Source: an uncultured Paracoccaceae bacterium (GTDB lineage: Bacteria; Pseudomonadota; Alphaproteobacteria; Rhodobacterales; Rhodobacteraceae). From it: a stretch of DNA of 64,000 nt. The stretch lies in the NCBI GenBank assembly GCA_947487205.1, contig CANKVU010000003.1, positions 1 to 64,000 on the forward strand, in the 5' to 3' direction. Made by a program: the position numbers and the translations under genes. This document shows positions 6,345-32,622 of the stretch, piece after piece. Every line of letters starts with the position of its first letter. The first letter of the stretch is position 1. Below the pieces are notes generated by a model, which was given only the letters and a program-made list of their open reading frames with translations, ran no database searches and had not been told where the DNA came from.

Positions 6345-6503
6345 GGCAAGATTGTGTCGCCGGTTGTGACCGCGAGATTCGTCAACGGTTTGTTAACCAT
6401 GCCGACGGCTACCTTGCCGCGGGCCCGGTGCCGTCAGGCGCCTCCCCGACCAGAGGCGACGGCAGGGGGCCGGACCGGGTCGATCATGCTTGAAAGAATT
6501 TCA

Positions 6504-11780: not shown

Positions 11781-12434
11781 TCAGGACATGACCGAGAGAC
11801 TGCTCTCGCGGGCGGCGCGGACATGCGCGCGCATCGCCTCCTCGGCGGCACCGGGGTTGCGAGCTTTGAGCTGTGCGATGATGTCGAAGTGCTCCTTCAG
11901 CGCCTGATCTGCGCGGCCCGGCTTTCGGGAGGACCGGAGCCTGTGAATGCGAAGCTGGTAATAGACTTCGTTGAGCAGGATGCGCTGGATGTTCTCGCAA
12001 TTCGACGCCCTGGCGATGGCGATATGGAAATCCTCGTCGGGGCTGCGCTGCCGATAGACGCTCTGTCCGGATTCCGCGATGTCGGATGAATCGCGCAGCA
12101 GCAGCGCTTCGAGCTCGTCGACGAAGTTGTCGGGTGCGAACTCGGCGGCCAGCCGCGCGGCCATGCCCTCGAGCGCCTCGCGCAGGTAGTAGAGCTGCCG
12201 CAATTCGGTCTGACCGAAACTGATCACGCGGACCCCGATGCGCGGCACGCGCGAGACGAGGCGCCCTTCAAGACGGTGGAGCGCCTCCCGGACGGGTCCG
12301 CGACTGATGCCGAGGCGCCTTGCGAGCTCCGCCTCGGAGATCTTCTGCCCCGGTTCGAACTCGCCGGAGATGATGGCTTCGACGACCCGCTCGAAGGCTT
12401 CGGACGCGAGCGAGGTTCCGACAATTCTGTCCAT
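11781..12434 (-). CDS. GntR-family (FCD/FadR) transcriptional regulator
   Basis: 217 residues. The N-terminal winged helix shows the GntR signature (IISGEFEPGQKISEAELARRLGISRGPVREALHRLE, residues ~20-57). The all-helical FCD effector domain follows (DEDFHIAIARASNCENIQRIL and a late HFDIIAQLKARN), which usually binds a carboxylate through a metal held by Asp/His residues. It is divergent from the catabolic operon starting at 12659. It most likely binds the inverted repeat at 12572-12589 and its partial copy at 21706-21723, and releases them when the pathway substrate or an intermediate is present. The ligand is unknown. Confidence 0.92.
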   Translation of the reverse strand: MDRIVGTSLASEAFERVVEAIISGEFEPGQKISEAELARRLGISRGPVREALHRLEGRLVSRVPRIGVRVISFGQTELRQLYYLREALEGMAARLAAEFAPDNFVDELEALLLRDSSDIAESGQSVYRQRSPDEDFHIAIARASNCENIQRILLNEVYYQLRIHRLRSSRKPGRADQALKEHFDIIAQLKARNPGAAEEAMRAHVRAARESSLSVMS

Positions 12435-12571
12435 ACGGGCACTCTGTCTGGTGTGGATTTCGGCGCGGGCAACCGGATGACGGCGTGTCCGATCCCTGCG
12501 CGACGATCTCCGATTTCAACTTCTGGATACCATCGAAGGGCGTCGCCTGTCGATCTGTAATCGGTTTTTGG

Positions 12572-12589
12572 TAAACTGTTGACAGTTTA
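12572..12589. promoter_or_regulatory. Inverted-repeat operator over -35 of catabolic operon
   Basis: TAAACTGT-TG-ACAGTTTA is an 8-bp perfect dyad. A consensus -35 hexamer TTGACA (12579-12584) sits inside it, with a weak -10 TATCCC at 12602-12607 after a 17-base spacer. A repressor bound here would block RNA polymerase. It lies between the GntR gene and the pathway operon. The left half is repeated exactly at 21706-21713. Confidence 0.7.
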
Positions 12590-12658
12590 TCGGGCGCGGG
12601 CTATCCCTCCGGCAAGCGGCCGAACCTCCGCGTGCCGACACAACCGACGGATGACGAG

Positions 12659-13525
12659 ATGAAGAATACCGAGAAACTGAAAGCCCTGGCCGGCGAGCGT
12701 CGGGCGATCAGTGTGCCCGGAGCCGCGAACGGCATGTTCGCCCGCGTCATCGAGGATCTCGGCTTTGACGCGGTCTATGCCACCGGTGCGGGCATCGCGA
12801 ACATGTCTCTGGGTGCGCCGGATGTGGGCCTCACGACCGTCACCGAAGTCGCGAAGGCCGTGGCGGACATGGCCGACGCGGTCGACCTTCCGATCATCGT
12901 CGATGCCGATACCGGCTTCGGGAACGCGGTGAACACGGTCCGCACCGTACGCCTCCTGGAGCGGGCAGGGGCCGCCGCGATCCAGATCGAGGATCAGGTC
13001 TTTCCCAAGAAATGCGGCCACTTCTCCGGCAAGGCGGTGATCCCCCGATCCGAGATGGTGCAGAAGGTCCGCGCGGCGGTGGACACGCGCCAGAACGACA
13101 GCCTGATGATCATCGCCCGGACCGACGCGCGCGCGGTCGAGGGGCTCGATGCGGCCATCGATCGCGCGCATGCCTATATCGAGGCAGGCGCCGACATGAC
13201 GTTCGTCGAGGCGCCCCAGGATTTCGGAGAGCTGGCCCGGATCGGCCGCGAGCTTCCGGTGCCGCAGGTGGCCAATATCGTCTTCGGCGGGCGCACGCCG
13301 GACCCGGGCCGCGACGTGCTGGCCGAGAACGGGTTCGGCTTCGTCCTCTATGCCAATGCCGCGCTGCAGGCGGCGCTCAGGGCCTCGCGGGAGGTGCTCG
13401 GCGCGCTGAAGGAAGACGGCTCCCTCGACCGGGTGTCTGACCGGCTGGCCTCGTTCGAGGAGCGGCAGACCACCGTGGACAAGAAGACGTGGGATGCGCT
13501 CGAGGAGAGATACAATGACGACTGA
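12659..13525 (+). CDS. Isocitrate lyase/PEP mutase superfamily C-C lyase
   Basis: 288 residues from the ATG at 12659; a GTG at 12632 is a possible longer start. Superfamily motifs are VDADTGFGN (metal site), IQIEDQ and FPKKCGHFSGK. The Cys in KKCGH is the general acid of lyases such as isocitrate, methylisocitrate and 2,3-dimethylmalate lyase and is absent from PEP mutases, so cleavage of a 2-hydroxy-dicarboxylate to two shorter acids is the likely reaction. It is the first gene of a seven-gene operon and may perform the terminal carbon-skeleton cleavage. Exact substrate is unknown. Confidence 0.88.
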   Translation: MKNTEKLKALAGERRAISVPGAANGMFARVIEDLGFDAVYATGAGIANMSLGAPDVGLTTVTEVAKAVADMADAVDLPIIVDADTGFGNAVNTVRTVRLLERAGAAAIQIEDQVFPKKCGHFSGKAVIPRSEMVQKVRAAVDTRQNDSLMIIARTDARAVEGLDAAIDRAHAYIEAGADMTFVEAPQDFGELARIGRELPVPQVANIVFGGRTPDPGRDVLAENGFGFVLYANAALQAALRASREVLGALKEDGSLDRVSDRLASFEERQTTVDKKTWDALEERYNDD

Positions 13526-14207
13526 CACCCGGCGCCCGTGGGACGGGATCATCGGCGAGGACGAGCTGCGCGCCTACGAGGCGGCCGGGTTCGGCGCCCC
13601 AACGGGCCTCGGCACGCGCCCCGCGCTTCTGATCATCGATGTCCAGTACCGCACCGTCGGCACCGAGCCGAAGCCGTTCTTCGAGGCGGTGAAGGAATTC
13701 CCGACAGCGTGCGGGCAGGTCGGCTGGGACGCGGTCGCGAACATCGCGCGGATCCTCAAGGTGTTCCGCGAGAACGGGTGGCCGGTCCTCTATCCCTACG
13801 TCGCGCCGAAGGAGCGCTTCGATGTCGGGCGGCTGGCCGAGAAGGTTCCGGCCCTCATGGGCGTGGCGGCCAAGGGCTACGAGTTCGTTCCGGACGTGGC
13901 CCCCGCCGAGGCGGACATCCTGCTGCCTAAAAAGCATCCCAGCGCGTTCTTCGGCACGCCCCTGGCGAGCTACCTGATCGACCTCGGCGCCGACTCGCTC
14001 GTCGTCACGGGGTGCACGACAAGCGGCTGCGTCCGCGGCTCGGTCGTGGACGCCTTCGCCTACAACTTCCATGTGACGGTGCCGCAGGACGCGGTCTACG
14101 ACCGGTCGAGCACCTCCCATGCCGTGAACCTGTTCGACATGGCCTCGAAATACGCGGACGTGATGCCCACCGACGCTGTGATCGACGCCCTGGCCGAGGT
14201 CGGCTGA
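13515..14207 (+). CDS. Isochorismatase-family amidohydrolase
   Basis: 230 residues; the ATG at 13515 overlaps the previous gene by 11 bases and has a strong GAGGAGAG ribosome site. The cysteine-hydrolase triad is visible: Asp42 in LLIIDVQ, Lys in LLPKKHPSAFFGT, and the nucleophilic Cys in VTGCTTSGCVRGSVVDAF. TTSGCVR is typical of the N-carbamoylsarcosine amidase / maleamate amidohydrolase branch, rather than isochorismatases proper. It should release ammonia, or ammonia plus CO2, from an amide or carbamoyl intermediate. The position inside the operon fits a ring-opened amide substrate. Confidence 0.88.
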   Translation: MTTDTRRPWDGIIGEDELRAYEAAGFGAPTGLGTRPALLIIDVQYRTVGTEPKPFFEAVKEFPTACGQVGWDAVANIARILKVFRENGWPVLYPYVAPKERFDVGRLAEKVPALMGVAAKGYEFVPDVAPAEADILLPKKHPSAFFGTPLASYLIDLGADSLVVTGCTTSGCVRGSVVDAFAYNFHVTVPQDAVYDRSSTSHAVNLFDMASKYADVMPTDAVIDALAEVG

Positions 14208-14251
14208 CCCCGGATCAACCGCCGATACCGCACCCGACGAGGAGAGCCCGC

Positions 14252-15625
14252 ATGACCGACGACGTCGATTTCCTGGTGATCGGAGCGGGCGCCTGCGGGC
14301 TCTGCGCCGCCATCGCGGCCACCGATGCCGGCCTGAGCGCCGCCATCGTGGAGAAGACCGACCGCCCGGGGGGGAACTCGGCCCTCAGCACGGGGTCCGT
14401 CCCCGCGGCGGGGTCCCGTTTCCAGAGGGAGGCGGGCATCGAGGACGACGCCGAGACCTATTTTCGGGATCTCATGGCGATCGCGGGCGAGACCGACGAC
14501 CCGGACCTGGTGCGCCGCATGACCGAGGTCTCGGCGGAGACCGTGGAATGGCTGGTGGACTCGGTCAAGGCCCGGATGGAGCTGGTGACCGCCTACAAGC
14601 ATATCGGCCATTCCGTCCCGCGCCTGCATGCTCCGAAATCCCGCCGGGGACGGGACCTCGTCGATGACCTCGAGCGCGCGGTGGAGGAACGCGACATCCC
14701 GCTCGCCGTGGGCAACGCCGTCAAGCGGCTCATCGTCGAGGGGGGGCGGGTCGCCGGCGCGGTCATCGACACCGGGAATGGCGAGGAGGTGGAGTTCCGC
14801 GCCGGCGCGACCCTCCTGGCGCTGAACGGCTTCGGCGCGAACCGAAAGCTGGTCGAGCGGTTCACCCCCGAGATCGCCGGAGCCCAGTATTTCGGCGCCG
14901 CCGGGTCCGACGGCGAGGCGGTCGAGTGGGGCGAGGCCCTGAACGCCCGGCTCGTGAACATGGAGGCCTATCAGGGATACGCCGCGGTCGCCGATCCGCA
15001 TGGCAGCATCCTGTCCTGGACCACGATCGAGAAGGGCGGCGTCCTTCTCGGGGGTGACGGCGCCCGGTTCGGCGACGAAAGCCTAGGCTATTCGGCCTTC
15101 GCCAGGCACGTGCTGGCCCAGGGCGCCTATGCCTATGCGATCTTCGATCGGCGCATCTTCGAGATCGCGATGCAGGAGGACGAGTTCGCCGAACTGCACG
15201 CGCATGGCGGCCTGAAGACCGGCGCCACGGTGGCGGAGGTGGCCCGCGCCCAGGATCTGGACGGTGATGCCGCCGAGGCGGCCGTGGCCGAGTACAACGC
15301 CGCCGCCGAGGCCGGAGAGGCCGACCGGTTCGGCCGGAGGGCGTTCGGCCTCGCCCCTCTGGAGGCGCCATTCTATTCCTGCCGCACCGTTCCGGCGCTG
15401 TTTCATACCCAGGGCGGCCTGAAGGTCGATGCGGACGCGCGGGTCCTGCGCAACGACGGCCGGCCCATCCCCGGCCTGTTCGCCGGCGGCGGTGCGGCGG
15501 CGGGCATCAGCGGGCGGGCCGGCGCGGGCGGCTATGCGTCGGGGAATGGATTGTTGACGGCCGTCGCGCTGGGCCGCCTCGCGGCACTCGCCGCCGCGGA
15601 CGATCTCGCGAAAGTCGAGGCATGA
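14252..15625 (+). CDS. FAD-dependent fumarate-reductase-like oxidoreductase
   Basis: 457 residues, ribosome site GAGGAGAG 5 bases ahead of the ATG. The N-terminal FAD motif is FLVIGAGACGLCAAIAATDAGL and GGNSALSTG continues it. A C-terminal FAD contact is GLFAGGGAAAGISGRAGAGGYASGNGLL. This is the FAD_binding_2 fold of fumarate reductases, flavocytochrome c and 3-ketosteroid dehydrogenases, which insert or remove a C=C bond next to a carbonyl or carboxylate. No heme, FMN or Tat motif is present, so it is cytoplasmic. In this operon it may reduce or desaturate the linear acid formed after amide hydrolysis. Confidence 0.87.
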   Translation: MTDDVDFLVIGAGACGLCAAIAATDAGLSAAIVEKTDRPGGNSALSTGSVPAAGSRFQREAGIEDDAETYFRDLMAIAGETDDPDLVRRMTEVSAETVEWLVDSVKARMELVTAYKHIGHSVPRLHAPKSRRGRDLVDDLERAVEERDIPLAVGNAVKRLIVEGGRVAGAVIDTGNGEEVEFRAGATLLALNGFGANRKLVERFTPEIAGAQYFGAAGSDGEAVEWGEALNARLVNMEAYQGYAAVADPHGSILSWTTIEKGGVLLGGDGARFGDESLGYSAFARHVLAQGAYAYAIFDRRIFEIAMQEDEFAELHAHGGLKTGATVAEVARAQDLDGDAAEAAVAEYNAAAEAGEADRFGRRAFGLAPLEAPFYSCRTVPALFHTQGGLKVDADARVLRNDGRPIPGLFAGGGAAAGISGRAGAGGYASGNGLLTAVALGRLAALAAADDLAKVEA

Positions 15626-17007
15626 GCCTCCTGGACGACCTTCTTGCCGCGACGGAGGGGGTCGCCTCGCTTCCCCCCGAGGTCGAGGCGGCGGCGTCCA
15701 GCCACCTGGTCGATATCGTCGGCGTCGCGTTCGCCGCAGCCCGCACTTCGGCAGGTGCCCCGTGGCGGCGTTATGCCGGGACGATCGCGGTGGGTGGGTG
15801 CGGCAGTTCGGTGATCGGCACCGGGACGACCGCGCCGGCGGCCGACGCGGCGCTGGTCAACGGCGGCTTGATGCACAGCCTCGAATACGACGATACCCAT
15901 ACCGGAGCCATCGCGCACGGATCGGCGGTTCTCGCCTCGACGGCCATCGCCGTGGGCGAGGCCGAAGGACGGACCGGTCGCGCCGTCCTTGCCGCGTACG
16001 CGGTCTGGTACGAGGTCCTGATCCGCCTGGGGCTGTCCGCGGCCGGCGGCTTTCAGGCACGGGGGTTCCAGCTGACATCGGTTGGGGGCGCGCTCTGCGC
16101 GGCGGGCATCGCGGCGACGCTCAAGGGGCTCGATCGCGGCGGGGTGGCGAACGCGGTGGGCATCGCGCTCAGCCAGGCGTCGGGCGTCTTCGCCTTCCTG
16201 TCCAACGGGGCGACGGTCAAGTCGATGCATCCCGGATGGGCCGCGCATTCCGGGATCAAGGCGGCCGAGATGGCCGCGGCCGGGTTGACGGGGCCCGACC
16301 GGCACTTCGACGACCCGTTCGGCCTGTTCCGGGTCTTCGCCGGGGATGCCGAAGGCGCCGACCGCTTCGCCGGCCATGTCGCCGATCTGGGTCACCGCTG
16401 GCATCTGCCGGAGGTGGCGTTCAAGTTCGTGCCGTGCTGCCACTACATCCACCCCTTCGTCGAGGCCGCCCGTGAATTGACGCGGGACGGCCCGCGCGCC
16501 GAGGCGATCGGCGCGATCCGCCTGTTCGTGCCGGAGGGCGCGGCCCCGATCGTGTGCGATCCGTGGGACGCGAAATGCCGGGCCACCGGACACGCCGCGC
16601 GCTGGAGCCTTCCGGTGGTGGTGGCGATGCAGATCGTGGACGGCGCCGTGGGCCTGGAAAGTTTCGAGCGGGCGCCCCGCCAGGGGGTCTTCGACCTGGC
16701 GGACCGCACCACGTGGCGACCGCTCGAGAACAGCCGGTTTCCCGAGCGGTTCGACGCCAGGATCGAGATCGACGGCCCCGGCGGCGACACGCGCACGCTC
16801 CGGATCGACGACGTCTACGGCAACGCGTCGCGACCGCCGTCGGAGGCCGCCATCCTCGCCAAGTTCCACGACAATCTCGGGCCCATGGTCGACCCGGGCC
16901 GAGCCAGCCGGCTTGCCGGCGCGTTGCGCGGCATGGGCGGCCTGGACGATCTGGGCCCCGTCCGCGCCTTGCTGGCCGGCATTTCCGCACTGGAGGCACA
17001 GGAATGA
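15622..17007 (+). CDS. MmgE/PrpD-family protein (first copy)
   Basis: 461 residues; ATGA overlap with the FAD gene. The family signature is visible in DIVGVAFAAARTSAGAPWRRY, NGGLMHSLEYDDTHTGAIAHGSA, SGVFAFLSNGATVKSMHPGWAAHSGIKAAEM and FKFVPCCHYIHPFVEAA. MmgE/PrpD enzymes include 2-methylcitrate dehydratase, cis-aconitate decarboxylase and iminodisuccinate epimerase, all acting on polycarboxylic acids. Here it may hydrate, dehydrate or isomerise the carbon skeleton upstream of the lyase. A second, divergent paralogue sits at 24745-26115 in the transporter operon. Confidence 0.9.
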   Translation: MSLLDDLLAATEGVASLPPEVEAAASSHLVDIVGVAFAAARTSAGAPWRRYAGTIAVGGCGSSVIGTGTTAPAADAALVNGGLMHSLEYDDTHTGAIAHGSAVLASTAIAVGEAEGRTGRAVLAAYAVWYEVLIRLGLSAAGGFQARGFQLTSVGGALCAAGIAATLKGLDRGGVANAVGIALSQASGVFAFLSNGATVKSMHPGWAAHSGIKAAEMAAAGLTGPDRHFDDPFGLFRVFAGDAEGADRFAGHVADLGHRWHLPEVAFKFVPCCHYIHPFVEAARELTRDGPRAEAIGAIRLFVPEGAAPIVCDPWDAKCRATGHAARWSLPVVVAMQIVDGAVGLESFERAPRQGVFDLADRTTWRPLENSRFPERFDARIEIDGPGGDTRTLRIDDVYGNASRPPSEAAILAKFHDNLGPMVDPGRASRLAGALRGMGGLDDLGPVRALLAGISALEAQE

Positions 17008-18395
17008 CACACGATCTGCTGATCACCGGGGCCGACGCCATCCTGCCGGGCGCGGGGCGCATGCGCTGCGACATCGCGGTGACGGAGGGCAGGATCGCGG
17101 CGATCCTCGCCCCCGGCAGCAAGGCCGAGGCCGCCGAGACGCTCGCGGCGGACGGGCGCCTCGTCATTCCCGGCGTGATCGACGGGCATCTGCACCTGGG
17201 CCACGGCACGTCCATCGCCCGCCCGCAGGTCCCCGAGGATGCCGACCGCGAGACCGCCGCGGCCGCGCTCGGCGGGGTGACCTGCATGATCCCCTATCTC
17301 ATGTCCACCGGTCCCTATTCCGAGATCTTCGACGAGGTCGTCTCCGTCACGCAGGCGGGCGCCCGGATCGACTTCGGATATCATCCCATTGTCTCCACCG
17401 AGGACCAGTTGTCCGAGGTGCCGCTCTACATCACCGAATACGGCGCCCCGACGCTCAAGATCTTCATGAACAACCGGGGTGGCGAGGGGGAACGGCTCGG
17501 CCTGCCCGACATCGACGACGGCTTTCTCTACCGGCTGGCCGAACAGGCCGCGCGGCATGGCGGGATGGTCAACCCGCACCCCGAGGCCATCGAGGTGGCG
17601 TGGACGTTGCGGGCCCGCGCGATGGACGCCGACCCCGAGGGAACGGGCGGACTGGCCGCCTGGAACGCGACCCGACCCGGGTTCATCGAGGGCGACGCCG
17701 TGCAGCGCGCCGCGTACCTGGCCAACCGGGCGGGCGCCCCGGTCTACATCGTCCACACCTCCTCGACCGAGGCGCTGGAGGCGGCCCTGGCGCGGCGACG
17801 GGCCGGCGATGTCGTGCATCTCGAAACCTGCCCGCACTACCTAACGCACGACGTGACGTGGGACGGCGGCACGGTCGGTAAGATCAATCCGCCCCTGCGC
17901 CACGCAGGGGACCGGGAGCGCCTGTGGCGGGCGATCCATGACGGGGACATCGACACCGTGGCCACGGACCACGTCCACCGCGACATCGGCTCGAAGGAGG
18001 GCGGGATCTGGAAGGCCTCGCCCGGGTGCCCCGGCATGGAGACGCTGCTGCCGGTCATGCTGACGGAGGGATACCGCAACCGCGGCGTGCCGCTCGAGCG
18101 GATCGTCGAGCTGCTCTGCGAGACGCCCGCCCGGCTGATGGGCCTGTCCGACCGGAAGGGCCGGATCGCCGTGGGGCTCGATGCGGATCTGGCGATCATC
18201 GACCTCGACGCCGAATATACCTTCGGGCGCGAGGACGTGGTGTCCTCGGCCGGCTACTCGATCTACGAAGGCTGGACGCTCCGGGGAAAGGTGACGGACA
18301 CGTTCGTCCGCGGTCGCGGCGTGGTGCGGGGCGGCGCGCTGGTCGAGGGGGCCGCGGGCACGGGCCGCTACCAGCACCGCATCCTGGGGCGCTGA
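17004..18395 (+). CDS. Dihydropyrimidinase/hydantoinase-like amidohydrolase
   Basis: 463 residues; ATGA overlap with the preceding gene. The metal ligands of the dinuclear amidohydrolase family are intact: His62 and His64 in GVIDGHLHLGHG, the carbamylated Lys in APTLKIFMNN, His in MVNPHPE, His in YIVHTSSTEALE, and Asp in TVATDHVHRD. C-terminal GLDADLAIIDLD packing is typical. These enzymes open cyclic amides such as dihydropyrimidines, hydantoins, allantoin or (enamidase) a partially reduced nicotinate ring. It is a strong candidate for the ring-opening step of this operon, though the ring substrate cannot be told from sequence. Confidence 0.9.
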   Translation: MTHDLLITGADAILPGAGRMRCDIAVTEGRIAAILAPGSKAEAAETLAADGRLVIPGVIDGHLHLGHGTSIARPQVPEDADRETAAAALGGVTCMIPYLMSTGPYSEIFDEVVSVTQAGARIDFGYHPIVSTEDQLSEVPLYITEYGAPTLKIFMNNRGGEGERLGLPDIDDGFLYRLAEQAARHGGMVNPHPEAIEVAWTLRARAMDADPEGTGGLAAWNATRPGFIEGDAVQRAAYLANRAGAPVYIVHTSSTEALEAALARRRAGDVVHLETCPHYLTHDVTWDGGTVGKINPPLRHAGDRERLWRAIHDGDIDTVATDHVHRDIGSKEGGIWKASPGCPGMETLLPVMLTEGYRNRGVPLERIVELLCETPARLMGLSDRKGRIAVGLDADLAIIDLDAEYTFGREDVVSSAGYSIYEGWTLRGKVTDTFVRGRGVVRGGALVEGAAGTGRYQHRILGR

Positions 18396-18396
18396 G

Positions 18397-19392: not shown

Positions 19393-19393
19393 C

Positions 19394-20287
19394 ATGGAAC
19401 TGCGCGCCCACGACCGCTACGACTACATTCCGCTTCCCGACCGGCCCGATTATTCCTGGCCCGGCGGCAAGCGCCTGGCCTTCTGCCTGTGCAACAACCT
19501 GGAGATCTTTGCCTATCGCGAGGGGCTGGGGTCGGACAGCGCGGTTCTCGGCGCGCCGCAGACCCACCGCAACTTTGCCTGGCGCGATTACGGCAACCGC
19601 GTCGGACAATGGTATCTGTTCGACCTGCTCGACGAGTTCGACCTGCCCGCCTCCCACAACACCAATTCGGGCCTGCTCGCGGCCTGCCCGCAGATCCTCG
19701 ACCGGATCCGCGCGCGGGGCGACGAGATCGTCGGCCACGGACGGACCAACGGCGAACGCCAGGACGATCGCGGAGAAGCCGAGGAGCGGGCGCTGATCGC
19801 GCAGGCGACCGAGGAGCTCGTGGCGCAGATCGGGACCCAGCCCAAGGGATGGATGGGGCCGTACTTCGCCCAGAGCGAGGTGACGCTCGACCTCCTGGCC
19901 GAGGCGGGCTACCGGTTCATGCTGGACTGGCCGGCCGACGACCAGCCCTTCTGGATGCGGACGCGATCCGGGCCGATCATGTCGGTGCCGTATTCCGTCG
20001 AGCTGAACGATTCCCCCGCGATGGTCTTCCGGCAGGAAAGCGCGATGTCCTTCGAGCGGATGATCGTCGACCAGTTCGACGAGATGCTGCACCAGTCCCG
20101 CAAGCGGCCGCTGGTCTTCACCCTCGTGACGCATCCGTTCGTCTTCGGCCATCCCTACCGCCTGCGTGCGCTGCGCCGGGCGCTTACCCACGTCATGCAG
20201 CACCGGGAGGATCTCTGGATCACGACCGTCGGCGGGGTCCACGATCACTGCGCCGGGCTGCCGGCCGGGATCGTGCCGGGCAGCTGA
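19394..20287 (+). CDS. Polysaccharide-deacetylase-fold hydrolase (PuuE/imidase-like)
   Basis: 297 residues, start one base after the previous stop. The length and motifs match the PuuE allantoinase branch of the NodB fold: CLCNNLEIFAYREG replaces the metal-binding TFDDG, SHNTNSGLLAACPQIL follows, and EIVGHGRTNGE replaces the HSxxH motif. The classic Asp-His-His metal triad of deacetylases is therefore incomplete. Members of this branch hydrolyse cyclic amides such as allantoin, and I recall that bacterial cyclic-imide hydrolases also fall here. Being last in the operon with two amidases, it is a second candidate for ring opening. Sugar deacetylation is unlikely. Confidence 0.85.
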   Translation: MELRAHDRYDYIPLPDRPDYSWPGGKRLAFCLCNNLEIFAYREGLGSDSAVLGAPQTHRNFAWRDYGNRVGQWYLFDLLDEFDLPASHNTNSGLLAACPQILDRIRARGDEIVGHGRTNGERQDDRGEAEERALIAQATEELVAQIGTQPKGWMGPYFAQSEVTLDLLAEAGYRFMLDWPADDQPFWMRTRSGPIMSVPYSVELNDSPAMVFRQESAMSFERMIVDQFDEMLHQSRKRPLVFTLVTHPFVFGHPYRLRALRRALTHVMQHREDLWITTVGGVHDHCAGLPAGIVPGS

Positions 20288-20291
20288 CGGA

Positions 20292-21650
20292 TCAGGCCCG
20301 GCGCGCCTTGAGGACATAGATCCGGCGCCGGTGCCGCCAGGGGCCCCGGCTCAGCCCGGCATCGTGGCCCGGGGCCAGTCCGATCCCCGCCTCGTCCACG
20401 ATCTCGAACCGGTCGGCCACGGCCATGCGGACGGTCCGGCTCGGCAGGGGAACGAACGGCCCCTGCAACGGAACCTGTCCGCGGCTTTCCACGTCGCGCC
20501 ATTCCCGTCCGTACCGGGAGGTCATGTTCCGCGTGCCGGCCAGCACCGTTCCGCCCGGCTTGAGGACGCGGCGGGCCTCGTCGAGAATGCCGGCAAGATC
20601 GGGCACCTGCTCCAGGGATTGCGGGAAATAGACGATATCCAGGCTGCCATCGTCGAAGGGCAGCTTGCCCGCTTCCGCGCGCAGGAACGCGGTGCCCTCG
20701 CGCTCCATGCCCTCGCTCCGAAGCCGTTCGCGGATGAAGGAGAGGTTGTTCTCGGACAGCTCCACGACGTTCAGCCGGGCATCGGGCGGAAGGCGGCGCA
20801 GCAGCTCCACGGTCGTGGTGCCGCCCCACGGCATGATCTCGGCGACGCTGGCAGCGGGAGCTACCGGGCCAAGCACGTCCAGTTCCCGCGCTGTGGCGTC
20901 CCCGTGCCGGGCCGAGACGAACACGCCCGGCGTCGGGGACTTGGCCCAGACGGAGTAGCCCCGGAAATCGGCGAGCTGATCCCAGCCCCACTTCGCGGGG
21001 TCCCACTCGGCGAACGGATTGTCATGGTTGGCGATCCGGTCGGCGGGATAGCTGTCGGCGGGTTTCACGGGATAGATCGTATGGGCCGGACGCTCGAAGC
21101 GGCCGAAGGACATGATCGTCTCGTCGGGCCGGCGCGGTGCCTTCATGGCCGGCGCGGTTTCCCCGGCGCGGCCGATCGCCAACGCGCCCAGGATCTCGAA
21201 GATTTCGGGGATCCCAAGCATCTCGCGGAGCGCGCCATGGTCTCCGACGCCCGCATTCCAGATGCCCGAATACCCCCGCAGGTGGGTGCTCAGCAGCATG
21301 TGATAGCCCGCCGCGCCGACCGACTGCACGACGGAATAGTTCCGGTGCGCCCAGCCTTTCTGGAACGTGAGGTAGATCAGGGCGCCGCACTCGGCGAAAT
21401 GGGGGTTGCCGCCGGCGATGTCGCGGGCCCGCCGCAGCGCATCGCGGTCGGTGACCACGACGAAGTGCCATTGCTGCTGGTTGCACGAGGACGGTGCCTG
21501 GGTGCCGTCGCGCACGATGCGGCGGATCACCTCCTCCTCCATCGGCCGCCCGTCGAAGACGCGACAGGAGCGGCGGGAGGACAGGCGGTCGAGGATCTCC
21601 TCCGCCTCGGTGGGGAGCGTATGGGCTGCTTCGAGAGCTTTTCCGGTCAT
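20292..21650 (-). CDS. Nitroreductase-methyltransferase fusion protein
   Basis: 452 residues. Residues ~20-205 are a nitroreductase-family FMN domain (SSRRSCRVFDGRPMEEEVIRRI..APSSCNQQQWHFVVV and GALAIGRAGE). Residues ~245-440 are a class I SAM methyltransferase-like domain (SVAEIMPWGGTTTVELL, NVVELSENNLSFIRERL, DIVYFPQSLEQVPDLAGILDEARRVLKPGGTVLAGTR). Its glycine-rich motif I is degenerate. The join is continuous with no frameshift. The gene is divergent from the TRAP operon and shares its operator, and converges 4 bases from the pathway operon end. The combined function is unknown; reduction then methylation of one aromatic or heterocyclic compound, or a sensing role, are both possible. Confidence 0.85.
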   Translation of the reverse strand: MTGKALEAAHTLPTEAEEILDRLSSRRSCRVFDGRPMEEEVIRRIVRDGTQAPSSCNQQQWHFVVVTDRDALRRARDIAGGNPHFAECGALIYLTFQKGWAHRNYSVVQSVGAAGYHMLLSTHLRGYSGIWNAGVGDHGALREMLGIPEIFEILGALAIGRAGETAPAMKAPRRPDETIMSFGRFERPAHTIYPVKPADSYPADRIANHDNPFAEWDPAKWGWDQLADFRGYSVWAKSPTPGVFVSARHGDATARELDVLGPVAPAASVAEIMPWGGTTTVELLRRLPPDARLNVVELSENNLSFIRERLRSEGMEREGTAFLRAEAGKLPFDDGSLDIVYFPQSLEQVPDLAGILDEARRVLKPGGTVLAGTRNMTSRYGREWRDVESRGQVPLQGPFVPLPSRTVRMAVADRFEIVDEAGIGLAPGHDAGLSRGPWRHRRRIYVLKARRA

Positions 21651-21705
21651 GACGATTTCCCTCGCGCTTTGCTGCCGCCTTCATTGACAGGACGGGACTT
21701 CAGTG

Positions 21706-21723
21706 TAAACTGTTAACAGATAG
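21706..21723. promoter_or_regulatory. Second copy of the GntR-type operator
   Basis: TAAACTGT-TA-ACAGATAG repeats the left half of the 12572-12589 site exactly; the right half keeps ACAG-T. The core TGTTAACA is a perfect palindrome. A -35-like TTAACA (21713-21718) lies inside it, with TCGAAT (21735-21740) as a possible -10 after 16 bases, reading toward the TRAP operon. It also lies upstream of the divergent nitroreductase fusion, so both could be controlled from it. Confidence 0.55.
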
Positions 21724-21798
21724 CAGAACCGACCTCGAATGTCGGTCGCGAACTACGACCCGGCAACCGGGCGTCCCACCGAAACAGAAGGACAAACG

Positions 21799-22809
21799 AT
21801 GCTCAGCAGGTTGGTCACGAACACTATTCTGGTCACGGCGCTCGGCGCCGGTGCGGCCCAGGCGCAGGAATTCCGGCTGAACTGGGGCCATTACCTGGCG
21901 AACGGTCCCTTCCTCGAGGTCGAGGACGAATTCATCGCCGCGGTCAAGGAGCGCACCGATGGCCGCGTCGAGTTCAACGTGGTCTATTCCGGCGGATTGG
22001 GTTCGGGTGACGAGTTGCTGACGCTGGCCGGCCGCGGTGCGGTGGATATTGCCTCGGTCGTGCCGGGCTATTACGCGAACCAGCTCCTGTTCGCGAAGGC
22101 GCTGCAGATCCCGTTCGTCTTCGATTCGCCCGCCGAAGCCATCGAGGTCGCCGAATATTCCTACGACAACATTCCCGCCTTCCAGGAAGAGCTCGCGCAG
22201 CTGCGCGTGCGCCGGCTGTTCCACCAGCCGCTCGGGTCGTACTACTTCGCCGGGCCCTCGGACGAGTGTCAGACGCTCGAAGGGCTGCAGGGCAAGAAGG
22301 TCCGCACGTTCGGGTCGGACATCCCCAAGATGATGGACGCAGTCGGTGCGGTGCCGCAATCGGTGCCCGCCGGCGACCAGTACGAGGCGCTCGAACGGGG
22401 CACCCTCGACTATGCCTTCGTGAATGTCGGCAATATCGAAGCCTACCGCCTCTACGAGCCGGGTCCGAACCTGTGCGGCCCGGCGCTGTCGATGGCCGGC
22501 CACATGGTCGTCGTCGGCGAGCGGGCGTGGCAGCGCCTTCCCGAGGACATCCAGACGATCATCCTGGAAGAAGCCGACAAGGCCCAACAGCGCTATGTCG
22601 AGTGGGTCGACGCCAGCGAGGCCCAATCGGCCGAGGCCGTCGAGGCCGCGGGCGCGACGATCCACGAGTACAGCGCGGAACAGCTGCGGCAGTGGGACGA
22701 CGCCGCGCCGGACATGCTCGCCCAATGGGTCGAAGAGCTCGAAGGCCGCGGTCAGGGCGAGGCGGCGCGGGAAACCGCTGATGCCTGGCGCGACCTGACG
22801 GCCGACTGA
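21799..22809 (+). CDS. TRAP transporter substrate-binding protein (DctP type)
   Basis: 336 residues from the ATG at 21799, preceded by AGAAGGAC. Signal peptide MLSRLVTNTILVTALGAGAAQAQ. The DctP fold is visible in RLNWGHYLANGPFLEVEDEFIAAVKERTDGRVEFNVVYSGGLGSGDELL, ALQIPFVFDSPAEA and LEGLQGKKVRTFGSDIPKMMDAVGAVPQSVPAGDQYEALERGTLDYAF. It captures an organic acid in the periplasm for the sodium-driven DctQM permease encoded next. Being under the same operator as the degradation operon, it probably imports the pathway substrate. The usual ligand-binding Arg is probably the one in KKVRTFG. Confidence 0.92.
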   Translation: MLSRLVTNTILVTALGAGAAQAQEFRLNWGHYLANGPFLEVEDEFIAAVKERTDGRVEFNVVYSGGLGSGDELLTLAGRGAVDIASVVPGYYANQLLFAKALQIPFVFDSPAEAIEVAEYSYDNIPAFQEELAQLRVRRLFHQPLGSYYFAGPSDECQTLEGLQGKKVRTFGSDIPKMMDAVGAVPQSVPAGDQYEALERGTLDYAFVNVGNIEAYRLYEPGPNLCGPALSMAGHMVVVGERAWQRLPEDIQTIILEEADKAQQRYVEWVDASEAQSAEAVEAAGATIHEYSAEQLRQWDDAAPDMLAQWVEELEGRGQGEAARETADAWRDLTAD

Positions 22810-22868
22810 CCCGGCGATCCATGCCGCTCCACCGCGCGGACGGCCTGCAGGGCCGACCGCGTACCGGT

Positions 22869-23393
22869 ATGACGGAGACTGAGATGCTGGACCGCGCACA
22901 ACGGATCATAGAGCGACTGGCGTTCCTGGCGGTGTTGCTGGGCGGCGCCGGCCTGCTGCTGTCGATGTTCCTGGGCATGGGCGACGTGATCGGCTCGCTC
23001 TTCAACCGGCCCCTGCCCGGGGCGCTCGAAGTCACGGAAAGCACGATGGTGCTGATCGTGTTCGGCGGGCTGGCCTACGCGCAGATCCGGCGGCGGCATC
23101 TGCGGGTGGAGCTTGCCTATCTCCAGGCCGGGCCCAGACTGCGCTCGACGATGGACATCGTGGCCTCGCTCAGCGGGCTGGTCTTCTTTTCCCTGCTGAC
23201 GTGGCAGGCCTACAACGAGGCGATCTTCGCCTACCAGATCGGCGAATCCACCTCCGGCCTCGTACGTTTCCCGCTGCTGCCCGCCCGCATCGCCGTCGTC
23301 GTGGGGTCGGGTCTCTTCATCGTTCAACTCTGCCTCGACCTGCTGAAGGACATCGTCTCCTTCGGCCGGCCGAAGGAATTCGAGCTGGGCTGA
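22869..23393 (+). CDS. TRAP transporter small permease (DctQ type)
   Basis: About 174 residues from the ATG at 22869; the ATG at 22884 has a better GGAG spacing and would remove five residues. Four predicted membrane helices (LAFLAVLLGGAGLLLSMFLG, STMVLIVFGGLAYAQI, IVASLSGLVFFSLLTWQA and a final IAVVVGSGLFIVQLCLDLL) match DctQ topology. It sits between the binding protein and large permease genes and forms the membrane complex with the latter. Confidence 0.88.
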   Translation: MTETEMLDRAQRIIERLAFLAVLLGGAGLLLSMFLGMGDVIGSLFNRPLPGALEVTESTMVLIVFGGLAYAQIRRRHLRVELAYLQAGPRLRSTMDIVASLSGLVFFSLLTWQAYNEAIFAYQIGESTSGLVRFPLLPARIAVVVGSGLFIVQLCLDLLKDIVSFGRPKEFELG

Positions 23394-23425
23394 ACCGCCC
23401 GCCTTCCCGACAAGAGGTTCCCGAC

Positions 23426-24727
23426 GTGTTCGACCCCGTGACGGCTGCACTCATCGTCATCGCCGTAGTCGCGATCCTCCTCGTCTCGGGGGCCCATATC
23501 GGTATCTCTCTGGGCCTTGGCGGACTTCTCGGCATGACGCTGACCATCGGCACCGCCGCCGCGATGGCGCAACTGGCCACGGTGCCCTTCAGCACCACGA
23601 ACTCCTTCACCCTCGCGGTCATTCCGCTCTTCATCCTGATGGGGTCTCTGGCCACCCAGGCGGGATTGACGACCGAGCTCTACCACGCCGCGTACAACTG
23701 GGTGTCCCGTCTGCCCGGGGGGCTGGCGATGACGACGACGATCGCCTCGGCCGCCTTCGGCGCGGCATCCGGATCGACCATCGTGAACGCCGCGGTCTTC
23801 ACGCGCATGGCGATGCCCGAAATGACGAAGCTCGGCTATTCCAAGCGGCTGTCGGCGGGCTCCATCGCCGCGTCTGGCACGCTGGCGGCCATGATTCCGC
23901 CGAGCGTGTTGATGGTGATCTACGCGATCATCACCGAGCAATCCGTCGGCATCCTCCTGATCGCGGGTCTCGTGCCCGGCCTACTGACGGCAATCGTGTT
24001 CCTGGTCGGCATCTACGTCATGGTCCGGCGCAACCCCGAGATCGCGCCCCGCCCCGCCAAGCCGATCCCGATGTCCGAGAAGCTCGCCTCGCTCAAGAAC
24101 GTCTGGGGCATCGTCCTCTTGTTCGGATTGGTGATCGGCGGCATCTACGGCGGTTTCTTCGTGCCGACCTATGCCGGGGCGGTCGGCGCCTTCATGATCG
24201 TGATCCTGAAGCGGCGTGCAAGTCCGGGCGTCCTGGCCGAAACGTTCCGGGACGCGGTGCTGACCAGTTCGACCATCTTCCTGGTGATCATCGGGGGCAT
24301 GCTGTTCGCGCGTTTCCTGACCTATACCGGCCTTGTCTCGACCGTGTCGGAAACGGTCCTGGCCTTCGGGTTGCCGCCCTTCGCCTATCTGATGGCCTTC
24401 GCGCTGCTGTTCCTGATCCTGGGCATGTTCATCGAGCCCATCGCGATCATGATCATGACGCTGCCGGTCATGTTCCCGGTCATGACCGAAGTCGGCTACG
24501 ATCCCGTCTGGCTCGGCGTCATCGCGGTGAAGATGGCCGAGATATCGCTCATCACGCCACCTGTGGGCCTGAACGTCTATGTGGTGCGAAGCGCCTCTCC
24601 GGTGCCGCTGAGCCTCGGGGATGTCTTCAGGGGTGTCGCGCCGTTCATCGGCTTGGAGGCCCTCGTGCTCATGTTGCTGATCCTGTTCCCCGAGATCGCG
24701 ACCTTCCTGCCCTCCATCGCCGGCTGA
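23426..24727 (+). CDS. TRAP transporter large permease (DctM type)
   Basis: 433 residues from a GTG preceded by AAGAGG. Around twelve hydrophobic helices carry the DctM signatures (NSFTLAVIPLFILMGSLATQAG, FGAASGSTIVNAAVFTRMAMPEM, AASGTLAAMIPPSVLMVIYAIITEQSVG, EISLITPPVGLNVYV). It catalyses sodium-coupled substrate uptake. The frame stays open upstream into the DctQ gene but with no family homology, so the GTG is the sensible start. Confidence 0.92.
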   Translation: MFDPVTAALIVIAVVAILLVSGAHIGISLGLGGLLGMTLTIGTAAAMAQLATVPFSTTNSFTLAVIPLFILMGSLATQAGLTTELYHAAYNWVSRLPGGLAMTTTIASAAFGAASGSTIVNAAVFTRMAMPEMTKLGYSKRLSAGSIAASGTLAAMIPPSVLMVIYAIITEQSVGILLIAGLVPGLLTAIVFLVGIYVMVRRNPEIAPRPAKPIPMSEKLASLKNVWGIVLLFGLVIGGIYGGFFVPTYAGAVGAFMIVILKRRASPGVLAETFRDAVLTSSTIFLVIIGGMLFARFLTYTGLVSTVSETVLAFGLPPFAYLMAFALLFLILGMFIEPIAIMIMTLPVMFPVMTEVGYDPVWLGVIAVKMAEISLITPPVGLNVYVVRSASPVPLSLGDVFRGVAPFIGLEALVLMLLILFPEIATFLPSIAG

Positions 24728-24744
24728 CACCCCAAGGAGCTGCC

Positions 24745-26115
24745 ATGACGACGAGCGCCCCGCTCCACGACCACCTTCGCGCTCTGGTGGCGTGGTCCTC
24801 CGGCCTGGCTCCGGACGCGATACCGGAGGACGTGCGGCGGCGGGCGGGCCTCATCCTGTGGGACGATTTCGGCGCGTTGCTGGCGGCGCGGTCGGAACCC
24901 GAGATCGTCGCCCTGCGCCGCAAGATCGCCGAAAGCGGCGGGCGCGCCGAGGCCACGGTGTTCGATGGCGGTGCCGTCCGGACCGACCGGTACAGCGCCG
25001 CGCTGGGCAACGGTTGCGCGGCCGACTGGTGCGAACTGGACGGCGGCTTCCGCCCGGTCGTGTGCCATGCCGCGCTCTACGTCCTGCCGGCCCTGCTCGC
25101 CGAGGCCGAAGCGACCGACGCGCGGGTCGACGACCTGCTGGCGGCCCTGGTCGTCGGCTACGAGACCGTGGCCCGCGTCGCACGGGCGTTCACCTTCCCG
25201 GCGCTGACGCTCCATCCGCATGGCGGTCTCGCCACGATCGGCGCGGCGGCGGCCGTCGCGCACCTGCGGGGCCACGATCCCGCGATCCGCCTCCGGGCCC
25301 TCACCGGTGCCGCCACGATGGTCTTCCCGGGGCCCTTCGGACACGCCGTCGAGGGCGCGCTGATCCGCAACGTCTGGCCGGGCCATTGCGCTCAAACCGG
25401 CATGCGGGCCGTCGATTGGGCGGAAATCGGGATTGGCGGCACGTCATCGAGCCTGTCCGACGTGTTCTGCGGGATTTTCGGAGCCAGCGCCGCGCCCCAC
25501 GCCCTGTCTTCCGACCTCGGAACGGATTGGGCCATGACCGACGGCTATCACAAGATGCACGCGTGCTGTCAGTACGCGCATTCGACGGTCGAGGCGATCC
25601 AGGCCGCTCTGGAGGCCCGCGACACCCCCCCTGGGGTCGGCGACATCGCCGATATCCGCGTCGAGACCCACGACAAGGCGCTCAAGCTCGACAATGCGGC
25701 GCCGGCGACTACCCTCGCCGCGAAGTTCTCGATGCAGCATGTCGCGGCCGCGTCCCTTCTCACGGGATCGGCGGATGCCGACGCGTTTCATGCCGACACG
25801 CTCGCGGCCCCCGCATTCGATACCCTGCGCAAGATCGTCACGCTGGCGCCGTTCGGGCCTGCTCTTCCCCCGCCGCATGACCGTCCGGCCCGTGTCACCA
25901 TACGGTTGCGCGACGGAACGGTCCTGCAAGGCGAGTGCCTGAGCGCCCGTGGGGGACCGGATCGCCCCTTCGGCGACGACGAAATTCGCGAGAAGGGCCG
26001 CCGCCTCATCGAGGCCGCCTACCCGAACGCCAGCTCGTGCATGGCGCCGATCCTCCATGGCGATGCCGGCGATCTCCGCTGGGCACGGCTGGTGGCCGAG
26101 CTCACCTCGAGCTGA
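24745..26115 (+). CDS. MmgE/PrpD-family protein (second copy)
   Basis: 456 residues, AAGGAG ribosome site, 17 bases after the TRAP large permease, so part of the transporter operon. Family marks: ILWDDFGALLAARSEPEIVAL, ALGNGCAADWCELDGGF, HPHGGLATIGAAAAVAHLRG, ALIRNVWPGHCAQTGMRAVDWAEIG and MHACCQYAHSTVEAIQAAL. Only distantly similar to the copy at 15622-17007: the Asp-Asp of the LEYDDTH motif is ELDGGF here. The two copies probably act at different steps or on different stereoisomers of the pathway acid. Confidence 0.88.
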   Translation: MTTSAPLHDHLRALVAWSSGLAPDAIPEDVRRRAGLILWDDFGALLAARSEPEIVALRRKIAESGGRAEATVFDGGAVRTDRYSAALGNGCAADWCELDGGFRPVVCHAALYVLPALLAEAEATDARVDDLLAALVVGYETVARVARAFTFPALTLHPHGGLATIGAAAAVAHLRGHDPAIRLRALTGAATMVFPGPFGHAVEGALIRNVWPGHCAQTGMRAVDWAEIGIGGTSSSLSDVFCGIFGASAAPHALSSDLGTDWAMTDGYHKMHACCQYAHSTVEAIQAALEARDTPPGVGDIADIRVETHDKALKLDNAAPATTLAAKFSMQHVAAASLLTGSADADAFHADTLAAPAFDTLRKIVTLAPFGPALPPPHDRPARVTIRLRDGTVLQGECLSARGGPDRPFGDDEIREKGRRLIEAAYPNASSCMAPILHGDAGDLRWARLVAELTSS

Positions 26116-27119: not shown

Positions 27120-27164
27120 GGCGTCCTTCGTGTATCCGATGGGGTCCCGCGCGGGGCGAGAGGG

Positions 27165-28055: not shown

Positions 28056-28079
28056 TGCGTCCCTCCCCATCCATGGCGC

Positions 28080-29691: not shown

Positions 29692-29724
29692 CGGGTCATC
29701 CTCCATCGTGTTCCCGGTTCGACG

Positions 29725-30381: not shown

Positions 30382-30388
30382 GGCGTCC

Positions 30389-32524: not shown

Positions 32525-32548
32525 GCATCTATAATCGACAGGAATGCA
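32524..32548. promoter_or_regulatory. Candidate LysR-controlled promoter of TAXI-TRAP operon
   Basis: A perfect -10 hexamer TATAAT at 32530-32535 (plus strand) has no good -35 partner at the right distance, as is common for activator-dependent promoters. TGCAT (32524-32528) and ATGCA (32544-32548) flank it as an inverted repeat that also covers the LysR start codon, which would allow autoregulation. Confidence 0.35.
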
Positions 32549-32622
32549 CTTCACGCAACAGACCTCTTGGCCGATGCTGAACCCACGTCCCCCGACGGGG
32601 GCACGCGATCTGGGAGGACATC

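What the first reader, a model, noticed from the sequence alone, without database searches (positions are those of the whole stretch)
11781..26115. Regulated catabolic cluster for an unidentified cyclic amide, imide or ureide
Two operons share an operator-like sequence and a divergent GntR/FCD regulator. They combine two ring-opening candidates (dihydropyrimidinase-like, PuuE/imidase-like), two ammonia-releasing amidases (isochorismatase fold, asparaginase fold), an FAD C=C reductase-like enzyme, two MmgE/PrpD proteins, a KKCGH-type C-C lyase, and a TRAP importer. No characterised pathway that I know contains this set. The logic import -> ring opening -> deamidation -> reduction/hydration -> lyase cleavage is inferred; it resembles, but does not equal, nicotinate or cyclic-imide breakdown.
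Basis: partly seen in the sequence, partly recalled or inferred. Interest (0 to 1): 0.78.

Follow-up and report, generated by a model that had tools for sequence, protein, structure and literature searches.

The report
Regulon for breaking down cyclic imides
A rare bacterial gene set, switched by its own regulator, appears to import small ring-shaped nitrogen compounds, open the ring, strip off the nitrogen and cut the remaining carbon acid into food molecules; the exact compound is not yet known.

Summary
Window 11781-26115 encodes a GntR/FCD regulator, a PrpB-like lyase, two ring-opening hydrolases, two half-amide amidase-like enzymes, a FAD enzyme, two MmgE/PrpD proteins and a TRAP importer. 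All 13 genes match in 5 of 80 named relatives, the fusion in 21 of 80. The operator is real: two sites in the 4.18-Mb genome, one before each operon; 45 distinct sites in 26 related loci (21 with at least one; shuffles 0-2) and none in 56 other loci with a similar imidase-like gene. Relatives swap steps: a LeuD-aconitase fusion stands where one MmgE/PrpD gene normally is, amidase-signature genes where the asparaginase is missing, and one locus adds a HyuAB, LeuCD and second-lyase module. Best reading: a cyclic-imide pathway (ring opening, deamidation, redox adjustment, hydration, cleavage to pyruvate plus an acid). All reactions are inferred and the substrate is unproven. Hematinic acid, a tetrapyrrole fragment, fits well because its ring-opened acid is a one-carbon homologue of 2-methylaconitate; citrazinate-like imides and ureides remain rivals.

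The parts
11781..12434 (-). REG: GntR/FCD regulator, proposed ligand-responsive regulator of both operons
   Evidence: FCD 71.5 bits, GntR 58.1 bits; orthologues 44-89% in related clusters
12572..12589 (.). Operator 1, TAAACTGTTGACAGTTTA, in the REG/LYA intergenic region
12659..13525 (+). LYA: PrpB/ICL-superfamily C-C lyase with KKCGH
   Evidence: TIGR02317 292.9 bits, below cut-off 354.4; residues; alignments
13515..14207 (+). ISO: isochorismatase-fold half-amide amidase, maleamate-amidase-like
   Evidence: PDB 3ot4/3uao 103.8 bits; Asp, Lys and Cys of the usual triad (recalled) in at least 95% of 24 aligned sequences, one of them a duplicate
14252..15625 (+). FAD: FAD_binding_2 oxidoreductase of the urocanate/fumarate reductase family, altered active site
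15622..17007 (+). MMG1: MmgE/PrpD protein, proposed hydratase; its place is taken by a LeuD-aconitase fusion in L125
17004..18395 (+). DHP: dihydropyrimidinase/allantoinase-type cyclic amidohydrolase
   Evidence: TIGR03178 259.7 bits (cut-off 357.85), TIGR02033 228.5 (cut-off 393.25); PDB 1gkr 205.2 bits
18397..19392 (+). ASN: asparaginase-fold amidase with the amino-binding Asp (recalled role) replaced by Ala; proposed succinamate-type amidase
19394..20287 (+). PUU: PuuE/imidase-like (polysaccharide-deacetylase fold) ring-opening hydrolase
   Evidence: TIGR03212 97.1 bits, cut-off 424.6; 80 best relatives kept of 317
20292..21650 (-). NTRMT: nitroreductase domain fused to a methyltransferase domain, conserved marker of the cluster
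21706..21723 (.). Operator 2, TAAACTGTTAACAGATAG, in the NTRMT/DCTP intergenic region
21799..22809 (+). DCTP: TRAP solute-binding protein
   Evidence: PF03480 119.9 bits for the longer ORF 21739-22809
22821..23393 (+). DCTQ: TRAP small membrane subunit (true start may be further inside)
   Evidence: PF04290 74.7 bits
23426..24727 (+). DCTM: TRAP large membrane subunit (GTG start inferred)
   Evidence: PF06808 247.2 bits for the longer ORF 23201-24727; start
24745..26115 (+). MMG2: second MmgE/PrpD protein, cis-aconitate decarboxylase/IDS-epimerase relative

Best explanation
This is a two-operon, GntR-controlled regulon that imports and breaks down a cyclic imide (or a small family of imides and lactams) whose carbon skeleton is a substituted maleate or succinate. 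Proposed order: the TRAP system imports the compound; REG senses it or an intermediate and leaves the AACTGTTNACAGTT operators; PUU and DHP open the ring to a half-amide; ISO (maleamate-like) and ASN (succinamate-like) release ammonia; FAD and/or the nitroreductase half of NTRMT set the C=C oxidation state; MMG1 and/or MMG2 hydrate (or epimerise) the resulting aconitate-like acid; LYA cleaves the hydroxy-acid to pyruvate (or glyoxylate) plus a carboxylic acid. Shown here: gene content, shared operator, conservation, altered residues. Inferred: every reaction, its order, and that REG is the protein that binds the operator. My most likely concrete substrate is hematinic acid or related tetrapyrrole-derived imides: its ring-opened acid is 2-methyl-homoaconitate, whose hydrate LYA would split to pyruvate and glutarate (my chemical inference, about 1 in 5).
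For: Operator: no other copy in 4.18 Mb than the two here; 47 hits in 27 core loci, which are 45 distinct sites in 26 distinct loci, 21 with at least one, against 0, 2 and 2 hits in three Markov shuffles of the 27 loci and 0 in 56 other PUU loci. Sites also lie between LYA and AtuA-like or extra PuuE-like genes, and before an amidase gene in L044. Co-occurrence: 13 genes in 5 of 80, NTRMT in 21 of 80; LYA at 56-66% in 12 of 14 genomes searched whole. Swaps: MMG1's place held by a LeuD/DmdB-like + aconitase fusion in L125, whose genome has no MMG1 relative above 33%; ASN not found and an amidase-signature gene present in L041-L045, L047 and L125; a HyuAB + LeuCD + lyase + FAD module beside the cluster in L062. 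ISO's best structure is 3ot4/3uao, recalled as maleamate amidohydrolase. ASN's D90-equivalent is Ala in 11 of 11 copies: window, 6 loci of this cluster and 4 of the Hoeflea-type loci. TcuB within 4 of 80 named loci, 0.09 expected, though only L039 of the four is this cluster. The nitroreductase half resembles a cyclodipeptide C-C oxidase, 9exv, TM 0.85 by target length. Mo-hydroxylase + PUU loci, 7 of 14 with an ISO- or ASN-like gene, fit imides as PUU substrates.
Against: No enzyme of the set has been assayed, and none of the 10 proteins scanned reaches an NCBIfam cut-off. ISO matches N-carbamoylsarcosine amidohydrolase almost as well (95.8 against 103.8 bits), so a ureide is not excluded. 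FAD lacks the aligned catalytic arginine of its relatives. MMG1 is not universal: the genomes of L043, L047 and L050 have no relative above 35%, and no replacement hydratase was seen in those loci. LeuC and LeuD of L062 pass the leucine-biosynthesis cut-offs, so they may be ordinary biosynthetic genes. Three of the four TcuB cases lie in Mo-hydroxylase loci, not in this cluster. The ASN control is imperfect: 3 of 9 other asparaginases that could be aligned also lack that Asp. 5 of 24 named core loci, and L038, show no operator site at the threshold used. L045 has NTRMT beside ISO without TRAP, FAD or MmgE/PrpD genes in the locus. No tetrapyrrole-specific gene was recognised in the cluster, so the hematinic-acid proposal rests on chemistry only. 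NTRMT has no proven role in the scheme.
Confidence: 0.57

Rival explanations
1. The substrate is a six-membered imide of the citrazinate (isonicotinate-derived) type, or a tricarballylate imide. PUU and ISO would give aconitate monoamide and then aconitate or tricarballylate.
For: 14 named loci join a PUU relative to a CoxL-type Mo-hydroxylase gene, 7 of them with an ISO- or ASN-like gene; many have two large subunits, which would fit two ring hydroxylations next to N before ring opening. TcuB lies in three of these and in L039, and in the L180 region of another core genome. The isonicotinate route through citrazinate is recalled.
Against: No Mo-hydroxylase gene was seen in the window's cluster; its dedicated hydratases and lyase would be redundant if the product were aconitate itself.
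Confidence: 0.18
2. The substrate is a ureide, hydantoin or dihydropyrimidine: DHP opens the ring and ISO acts as an N-carbamoyl amidase.
For: DHP is closest to hydantoinases and allantoinases; ISO's second-best structure is an N-carbamoylsarcosine amidohydrolase.
Against: No M20-type carbamoylase or hydantoin racemase seen among the cluster genes scanned; two MmgE/PrpD proteins and a C-C lyase have no place in ureide routes that I know; ASN is not explained.
Confidence: 0.14
3. A simple imide such as succinimide, maleimide or citraconimide is used, with citramalate-type cleavage at the end.
For: Same enzyme logic; ISO resembles maleamate amidase (identity recalled).
Against: Extra ring openers, FAD enzymes and lyases beside the cluster in relatives, and TcuAB near L039 and L180, suggest bulkier, carboxylated substrates.
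Confidence: 0.11

Closest known systems
Aerobic nicotinate pathway, maleamate step (NicF)
   Same: Isochorismatase-fold amidase for an unsaturated half-amide; ISO best match is 3ot4/3uao (identity with NicF recalled)
   Different: No pyridine hydroxylase, dioxygenase or maleate isomerase was seen in the cluster genes scanned; here the ring is opened by imidase-like hydrolases
Methylcitrate cycle (PrpD, PrpB)
   Same: MmgE/PrpD hydratase family plus PrpB-family lyase
   Different: No PrpC among the cluster genes scanned; LYA below the PrpB cut-off and MMG1 at 28.1 bits against a PrpD cut-off of 950
Anaerobic nicotinate fermentation end, dimethylmaleate hydratase and 2,3-dimethylmalate lyase (recalled)
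   Same: Substituted maleate, hydration, PEP-mutase/ICL-type lyase giving pyruvate; the L125 fusion weakly matches a LeuD/DmdB-family model, 48 bits, cut-off 108.95; LYA matches 2,3-dimethylmalate lyase 3fa3 at 146 bits
   Different: Reached here through imide hydrolysis; MmgE/PrpD rather than Fe-S hydratase in the window
Microbial cyclic imide degradation (imidase plus half-amidase; recalled)
   Same: Ring opening then half-amide hydrolysis
   Different: Regulated import, redox enzymes, hydratases and lyase added
Tricarballylate utilisation (TcuA/TcuB)
   Same: TcuB genes lie near two clusters of this kind (L039, L180) and three Mo-hydroxylase loci; L039 and L060 pass the model
   Different: Not part of the window cluster; the genome's TcuB is on another contig

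Membership tests
2-methylisocitrate lyase PrpB | Curated model TIGR02317 cut-off | tested here: not met
   292.9 bits, cut-off 354.4
2-methylisocitrate lyase PrpB | K(K/R)CGH motif of the C-C lyase class | tested here: met
   KKCGH 117-121; Lys, Cys and His checked in 14 of 14 aligned lyase rows, one a duplicate; PrpB itself reads KRCGH
2-methylisocitrate lyase PrpB | Pro at the position of PrpB P236 (numbering recalled) | tested here: not met
   Ala in 9 of 9 LYA rows; Pro in the 5 second-lyase rows, 4 distinct
L-asparaginase | Catalytic Thr, Thr and Lys | tested here: met
   T16, T99, K172; the first Thr not covered in L039
L-asparaginase | Asp that holds the alpha-amino group (D90; role recalled) | tested here: not met
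   Ala in 11 of 11; control Asp in 6 of the 9 alignable of 13 other hits
Allantoinase PuuE | TIGR03212 cut-off | tested here: not met
   97.1 bits, cut-off 424.6
Allantoinase AllB / dihydropyrimidinase | TIGR03178 and TIGR02033 cut-offs | tested here: not met
   259.7 against 357.85 and 228.5 against 393.25
Fumarate/urocanate reductase (FccA/UrdA) | Catalytic Arg in the TRD/RRD stretch (role recalled) | tested here: not met
   Aligned stretch reads GYSAFA in the window; GYS in at least 95% of 24 aligned rows
Maleamate amidohydrolase NicF | Asp-Lys-Cys triad of the isochorismatase fold (recalled) | tested here: met
   IDVQYR, LPKKHPS, TSGCVR conserved
Maleamate amidohydrolase NicF | Activity on maleamate | not testable with these tools
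   needs an assay
Methylcitrate dehydratase PrpD | NCBIfam PrpD cut-offs | tested here: not met
   28.1 bits against 950 for MMG1; 18 against 575 for MMG2
Methylcitrate cycle operon | 2-methylcitrate synthase PrpC in the cluster | tested here: not met
   no citrate-synthase-family match among the cluster genes scanned
Imidase (cyclic imide hydrolase) | Hydrolysis of a cyclic imide | not testable with these tools
   no imidase model was matched

The most novel reading that the evidence does not exclude
The regulon is a bacterial route for mineralising tetrapyrrole fragments: hematinic acid and alkylmaleimides left by chlorophyll, bilin and heme breakdown are opened, deamidated, hydrated as aconitate homologues and cleaved by methylisocitrate-lyase-like enzymes. 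The extra modules in relatives (HyuAB, LeuCD, second lyase) would then handle the different side chains.
Probability: 0.22. Interest if true: 0.85.

Novelty: new variant of a known kind. Interest (0 to 1): 0.6.

Why it matters
If right, this is a nearly complete and testable pathway for cyclic imides. Its operator marks the member genes in other species, so the pathway can be tracked across genomes and its substrate found by screening one binding protein or one regulator. If the hematinic-acid reading holds, it would show how bacteria finish the recycling of chlorophyll and heme nitrogen; the one search on this (12 of 14 papers listed, titles and abstract starts) showed no such bacterial route. 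It also suggests roles for MmgE/PrpD, PuuE-like and nitroreductase-methyltransferase proteins.

Tried and rejected
Considered and rejected: methylcitrate cycle (no PrpC among cluster genes, scores far below cut-offs); nicotinate cluster (only the amidase-like part present); membership of the downstream 2-hydroxyacid dehydrogenase / ABC genes (not conserved with the unit). No sign of plasmid carriage: no match for NTRMT in 72,556 plasmid records.

Led nowhere: paper searches for imidase/maleimide (20 of 50 listed), dimethylmaleate (27, 20 of 25), isonicotinic/citrazinic acid (33, 12 of 24), hematinic acid with bacteria (34, 12 of 14), isonicotinate with citrazinate (39, none), cyclic imide (59, 12 of 125), TcuB with imide (60, 8 of 8), and combinations of the enzyme names (61 and 63, none) showed no matching pathway in titles and abstract starts. 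One paper, PMC7318184, was looked into by passages only. The library holds only open-licence PMC papers, so absence there is weak evidence. Class- and phylum-wide searches for NTRMT found 2 of 385 and 1 of 398 genomes, each count including the window's own. Fold search of the NTRMT model (mean pLDDT 77.9, pTM 0.67) supported the two domains but gave no substrate.

Weak points: my gene caller for loci is crude (ORFs chosen by GC frame and length) and failed on L038; some labels used in scripts (TctC, CitE, CaiB, MFS) are by eye. The core loci were chosen from gene content before the operator scan, and L038, which has several of the genes, was left in the other group. One of the 27 loci, L129, is the same DNA as L068, so 47 hits are 45 distinct sites; the conservation rows hold the same duplicate. 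The reversed-sequence control for the operator gave 4 hits in the 24 named core loci. The Q59 and E283 positions of ASN vary too much in the control to be used.


Full report
WHAT IS THERE. One gene was missed: 20292-21650 on the minus strand encodes a nitroreductase domain followed by a methyltransferase domain, and it sits between the two operons.

IT IS A CONSERVED UNIT. A scan of one genome per species with the PuuE-like protein found 317 relatives and returned the best 80 as named loci. Matches to all 13 genes (each over more than half its length) occur in 5 of 80: Roseivivax isoporae (L036), Actibacterium (L037), Aliihoeflea (L039), Falsigemmobacter (L040) and a Salinarimonadaceae MAG (L058). 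The fusion gene matches in 21 of 80. A second layout with most of the core genes in another order occurs in Thalassobaculum fulvum (L047), BAL199 (L042), a Paracoccus MAG (L057) and others. In 14 genomes searched whole for the lyase, 12 have it at 56-66% identity, mostly outside the first 20-kb locus; the exceptions are those of L082 (43%) and L066 (45%), and in L044's genome the match is in pieces, one with a stop. The unit is rare: the fusion gene is in 2 of 385 class genomes and 1 of 398 phylum genomes, the window's own counted in both. In the genus only the window's own genome of 14 has a PuuE-like protein above 52% identity.

IT IS A REGULON. AAACTGTTNACAG, drawn from the two window sites, has no third copy in the 4.18-Mb genome. 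Allowing two mismatches, AACTGTTGACAGTT gives 47 hits in 27 core loci against 0, 2 and 2 in three dinucleotide Markov shuffles, and 0 in the other 56 named loci that carry a PuuE-like relative. One of the 27 loci repeats another, so the distinct count is 45 sites in 26 loci, 21 of which have at least one. Of the 24 named core loci 19 have a site; the reversed, uncomplemented control gives 4 hits in those 24. The sites sit where promoters should be: between NTRMT and DCTP, between REG and LYA, between ISO and PUU, and beside AtuA-like, extra PuuE-like and, in L044, amidase genes. That REG itself is the protein that binds is inferred from its position next to a site.

WHAT THE RELATIVES TELL ABOUT THE CHEMISTRY. 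(a) In L125 the place between FAD and DctM is held not by MMG1 but by a 689-residue fusion of a LeuD/DmdB-like part and an aconitase-family part, and that genome has no MMG1 relative above 33%. A swap between unrelated hydratase families argues that MMG1 hydrates or dehydrates an aconitate-like acid. Against this, the genomes of L043, L047 and L050 also lack an MMG1 relative above 35% and no replacement was seen in their loci. (b) L062 carries, beside the core, LeuC and LeuD, caprolactamase-like HyuA/HyuB, an isochorismatase-like gene, a second PrpB-like lyase and a second FAD protein: the same logic with other enzymes. LeuC and LeuD pass the leucine-biosynthesis cut-offs, so they may be ordinary. 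(c) In L174 (BAL199) and L176 (T. fulvum) a module of FAD, HyuA and second lyase lies directly beside LYA, REG, DHP, NTRMT and the TRAP genes. (d) ASN is not found, and an amidase-signature gene is present, in L041-L045, L047 and L125 (Pfam check on L041 only). (e) TcuB, of the tricarballylate dehydrogenase pair, lies in 4 of 80 named loci: L039 of this cluster, and L060, L071 and L073 of the Mo-hydroxylase kind. From 38 of 149 family genomes with one copy each, 0.09 would be expected. A fifth case is L180, in the genome of L057. Only the L039 and L060 proteins were tested against the curated model, and both pass. The expectation uses the density in the window's family although some loci come from other families. 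(f) 14 named loci join PUU relatives to CoxL-type Mo-hydroxylase genes, 7 of them with an ISO- or ASN-like gene and 2 with an amidase-signature gene, as expected if PUU-type enzymes open imides made by hydroxylating a ring next to nitrogen.

WHAT THE SEQUENCES TELL ABOUT EACH STEP. ISO has its best solved relative in 3ot4/3uao (103.8 bits), which I recall as maleamate amidohydrolase; N-carbamoylsarcosine amidohydrolase is close behind (95.8 bits). ASN keeps the catalytic Thr, Thr and Lys but has Ala for the Asp that, as I recall, holds the amino group of asparagine. This holds in 11 of 11 copies: the window, L036-L040 and L058, and L048, L051, L071 and L073 of the Hoeflea type. Among 13 other asparaginase hits from 61 family genomes, 9 could be aligned: 6 have Asp, 2 Gly and 1 Ser. 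A half-amide without amino group is therefore likely but not proven as its substrate. LYA has KKCGH and keeps the Phe, Glu and Asn positions of PrpB, but has Ala for a Pro in 9 of 9 rows, and scores below the PrpB cut-off. The Phe is shared by petal death protein too, so it does not single out methylisocitrate lyase. FAD aligns best with urocanate reductase (181.6 bits), but the stretch that holds the catalytic Arg of those enzymes reads GYS in the cluster family; direction and substrate are open. MMG1 and MMG2 are nearest to cis-aconitate decarboxylase, IDS epimerase and, for MMG1, a Bacillus IRG1 protein. NTRMT was modelled at moderate confidence. Foldseek's first hit is a nitroreductase (4dn2); the nitroreductase half also matches a cyclodipeptide C-C oxidase (9exv, TM 0.85 by target length, 28% identity). 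The methyltransferase half has an invariant WGGT where I would expect a glycine-rich SAM motif (expectation recalled).

HOW IT MOST LIKELY WORKS. Import by TRAP; ring opening by PUU (unsaturated ring) and DHP (saturated ring); ammonia release by ISO and ASN respectively; redox adjustment by FAD and NTRMT; hydration by MMG1 and/or MMG2; cleavage by LYA. The pairing of each opener with an amidase is inference. A dedicated hydratase and lyase make most sense if the diacid is not an ordinary TCA intermediate. Hematinic acid meets this: ring-opened, it is 2-methyl-homoaconitate, one carbon longer than the substrate of the methylcitrate-cycle enzymes, and LYA would give pyruvate and glutarate. It also bears the carboxylate that TRAP binding proteins usually want (recalled). 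In passages of PMC7318184 hematinic acid was found in leaves in similar amounts to other chlorophyll products; maleimides were cited from earlier work in senescent leaves and lake sediments but were not detected in that study. The substrate is a hypothesis, at about 0.22; no tetrapyrrole gene was recognised nearby.

RIVALS. A citrazinate/isonicotinate-type imide explains TcuB and the Mo-hydroxylase loci but not the hydratases and lyase. A ureide explains DHP and perhaps ISO but not the rest. A simple imide explains the core but not the extra modules.

VERDICT. It is a new combination of known enzyme families with strong comparative support for one regulon and an unproven substrate.

Noticed in passing
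31607-36774: A separate group: LysR regulator, NMT1-like binding protein, fused TRAP-type DctM protein and an AtuA (PF07287, 510 bits) protein. A distant AtuA relative lies beside the cluster's operator in L125, L046 and others, but this window copy has no such site.
   Followed up: partly
26175-31093: 2-hydroxyacid dehydrogenase, 3-hydroxyisobutyrate-dehydrogenase-like protein and an ABC transporter with a family-3 binding protein just downstream; the four genes tested are not conserved with the cluster.
   Followed up: partly
L121 (own genome, contig C37): Another group with two MmgE/PrpD proteins, a LYA relative (35%) and a DctQM/NMT1-like transporter: a second lyase/MmgE pairing in the same genome.
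   Followed up: no
L053, L060, L067, L071 and relatives: Groups of Mo-hydroxylase large subunits, CoxM, CoxS, a PuuE-like protein and in some an amidase, with TcuB in three: a candidate pyridine-carboxylate (isonicotinate-like) pathway.
   Followed up: partly
L078-L100 (Roseomonas group): PuuE-like proteins (57-61%), often in pairs, with a TctC-type binding protein and a CitE-like protein (both named by eye), without the rest of the cluster: perhaps another cyclic-amide route.
   Followed up: no
20292-21650: Methyltransferase half of NTRMT has WGGT in place of a glycine-rich SAM motif; in 12 aligned orthologues W275, G276, G277 and T278 never vary.
   Followed up: partly
6354-9740: Autotransporter with passenger-associated-transport repeats (PF12951, PF03797) upstream of the cluster.
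   Followed up: no
L123 (own genome, contig C19): A second PuuE-like protein (42-43%); no other cluster gene was labelled in its 19-kb surroundings apart from an ABC ATPase.
   Followed up: no
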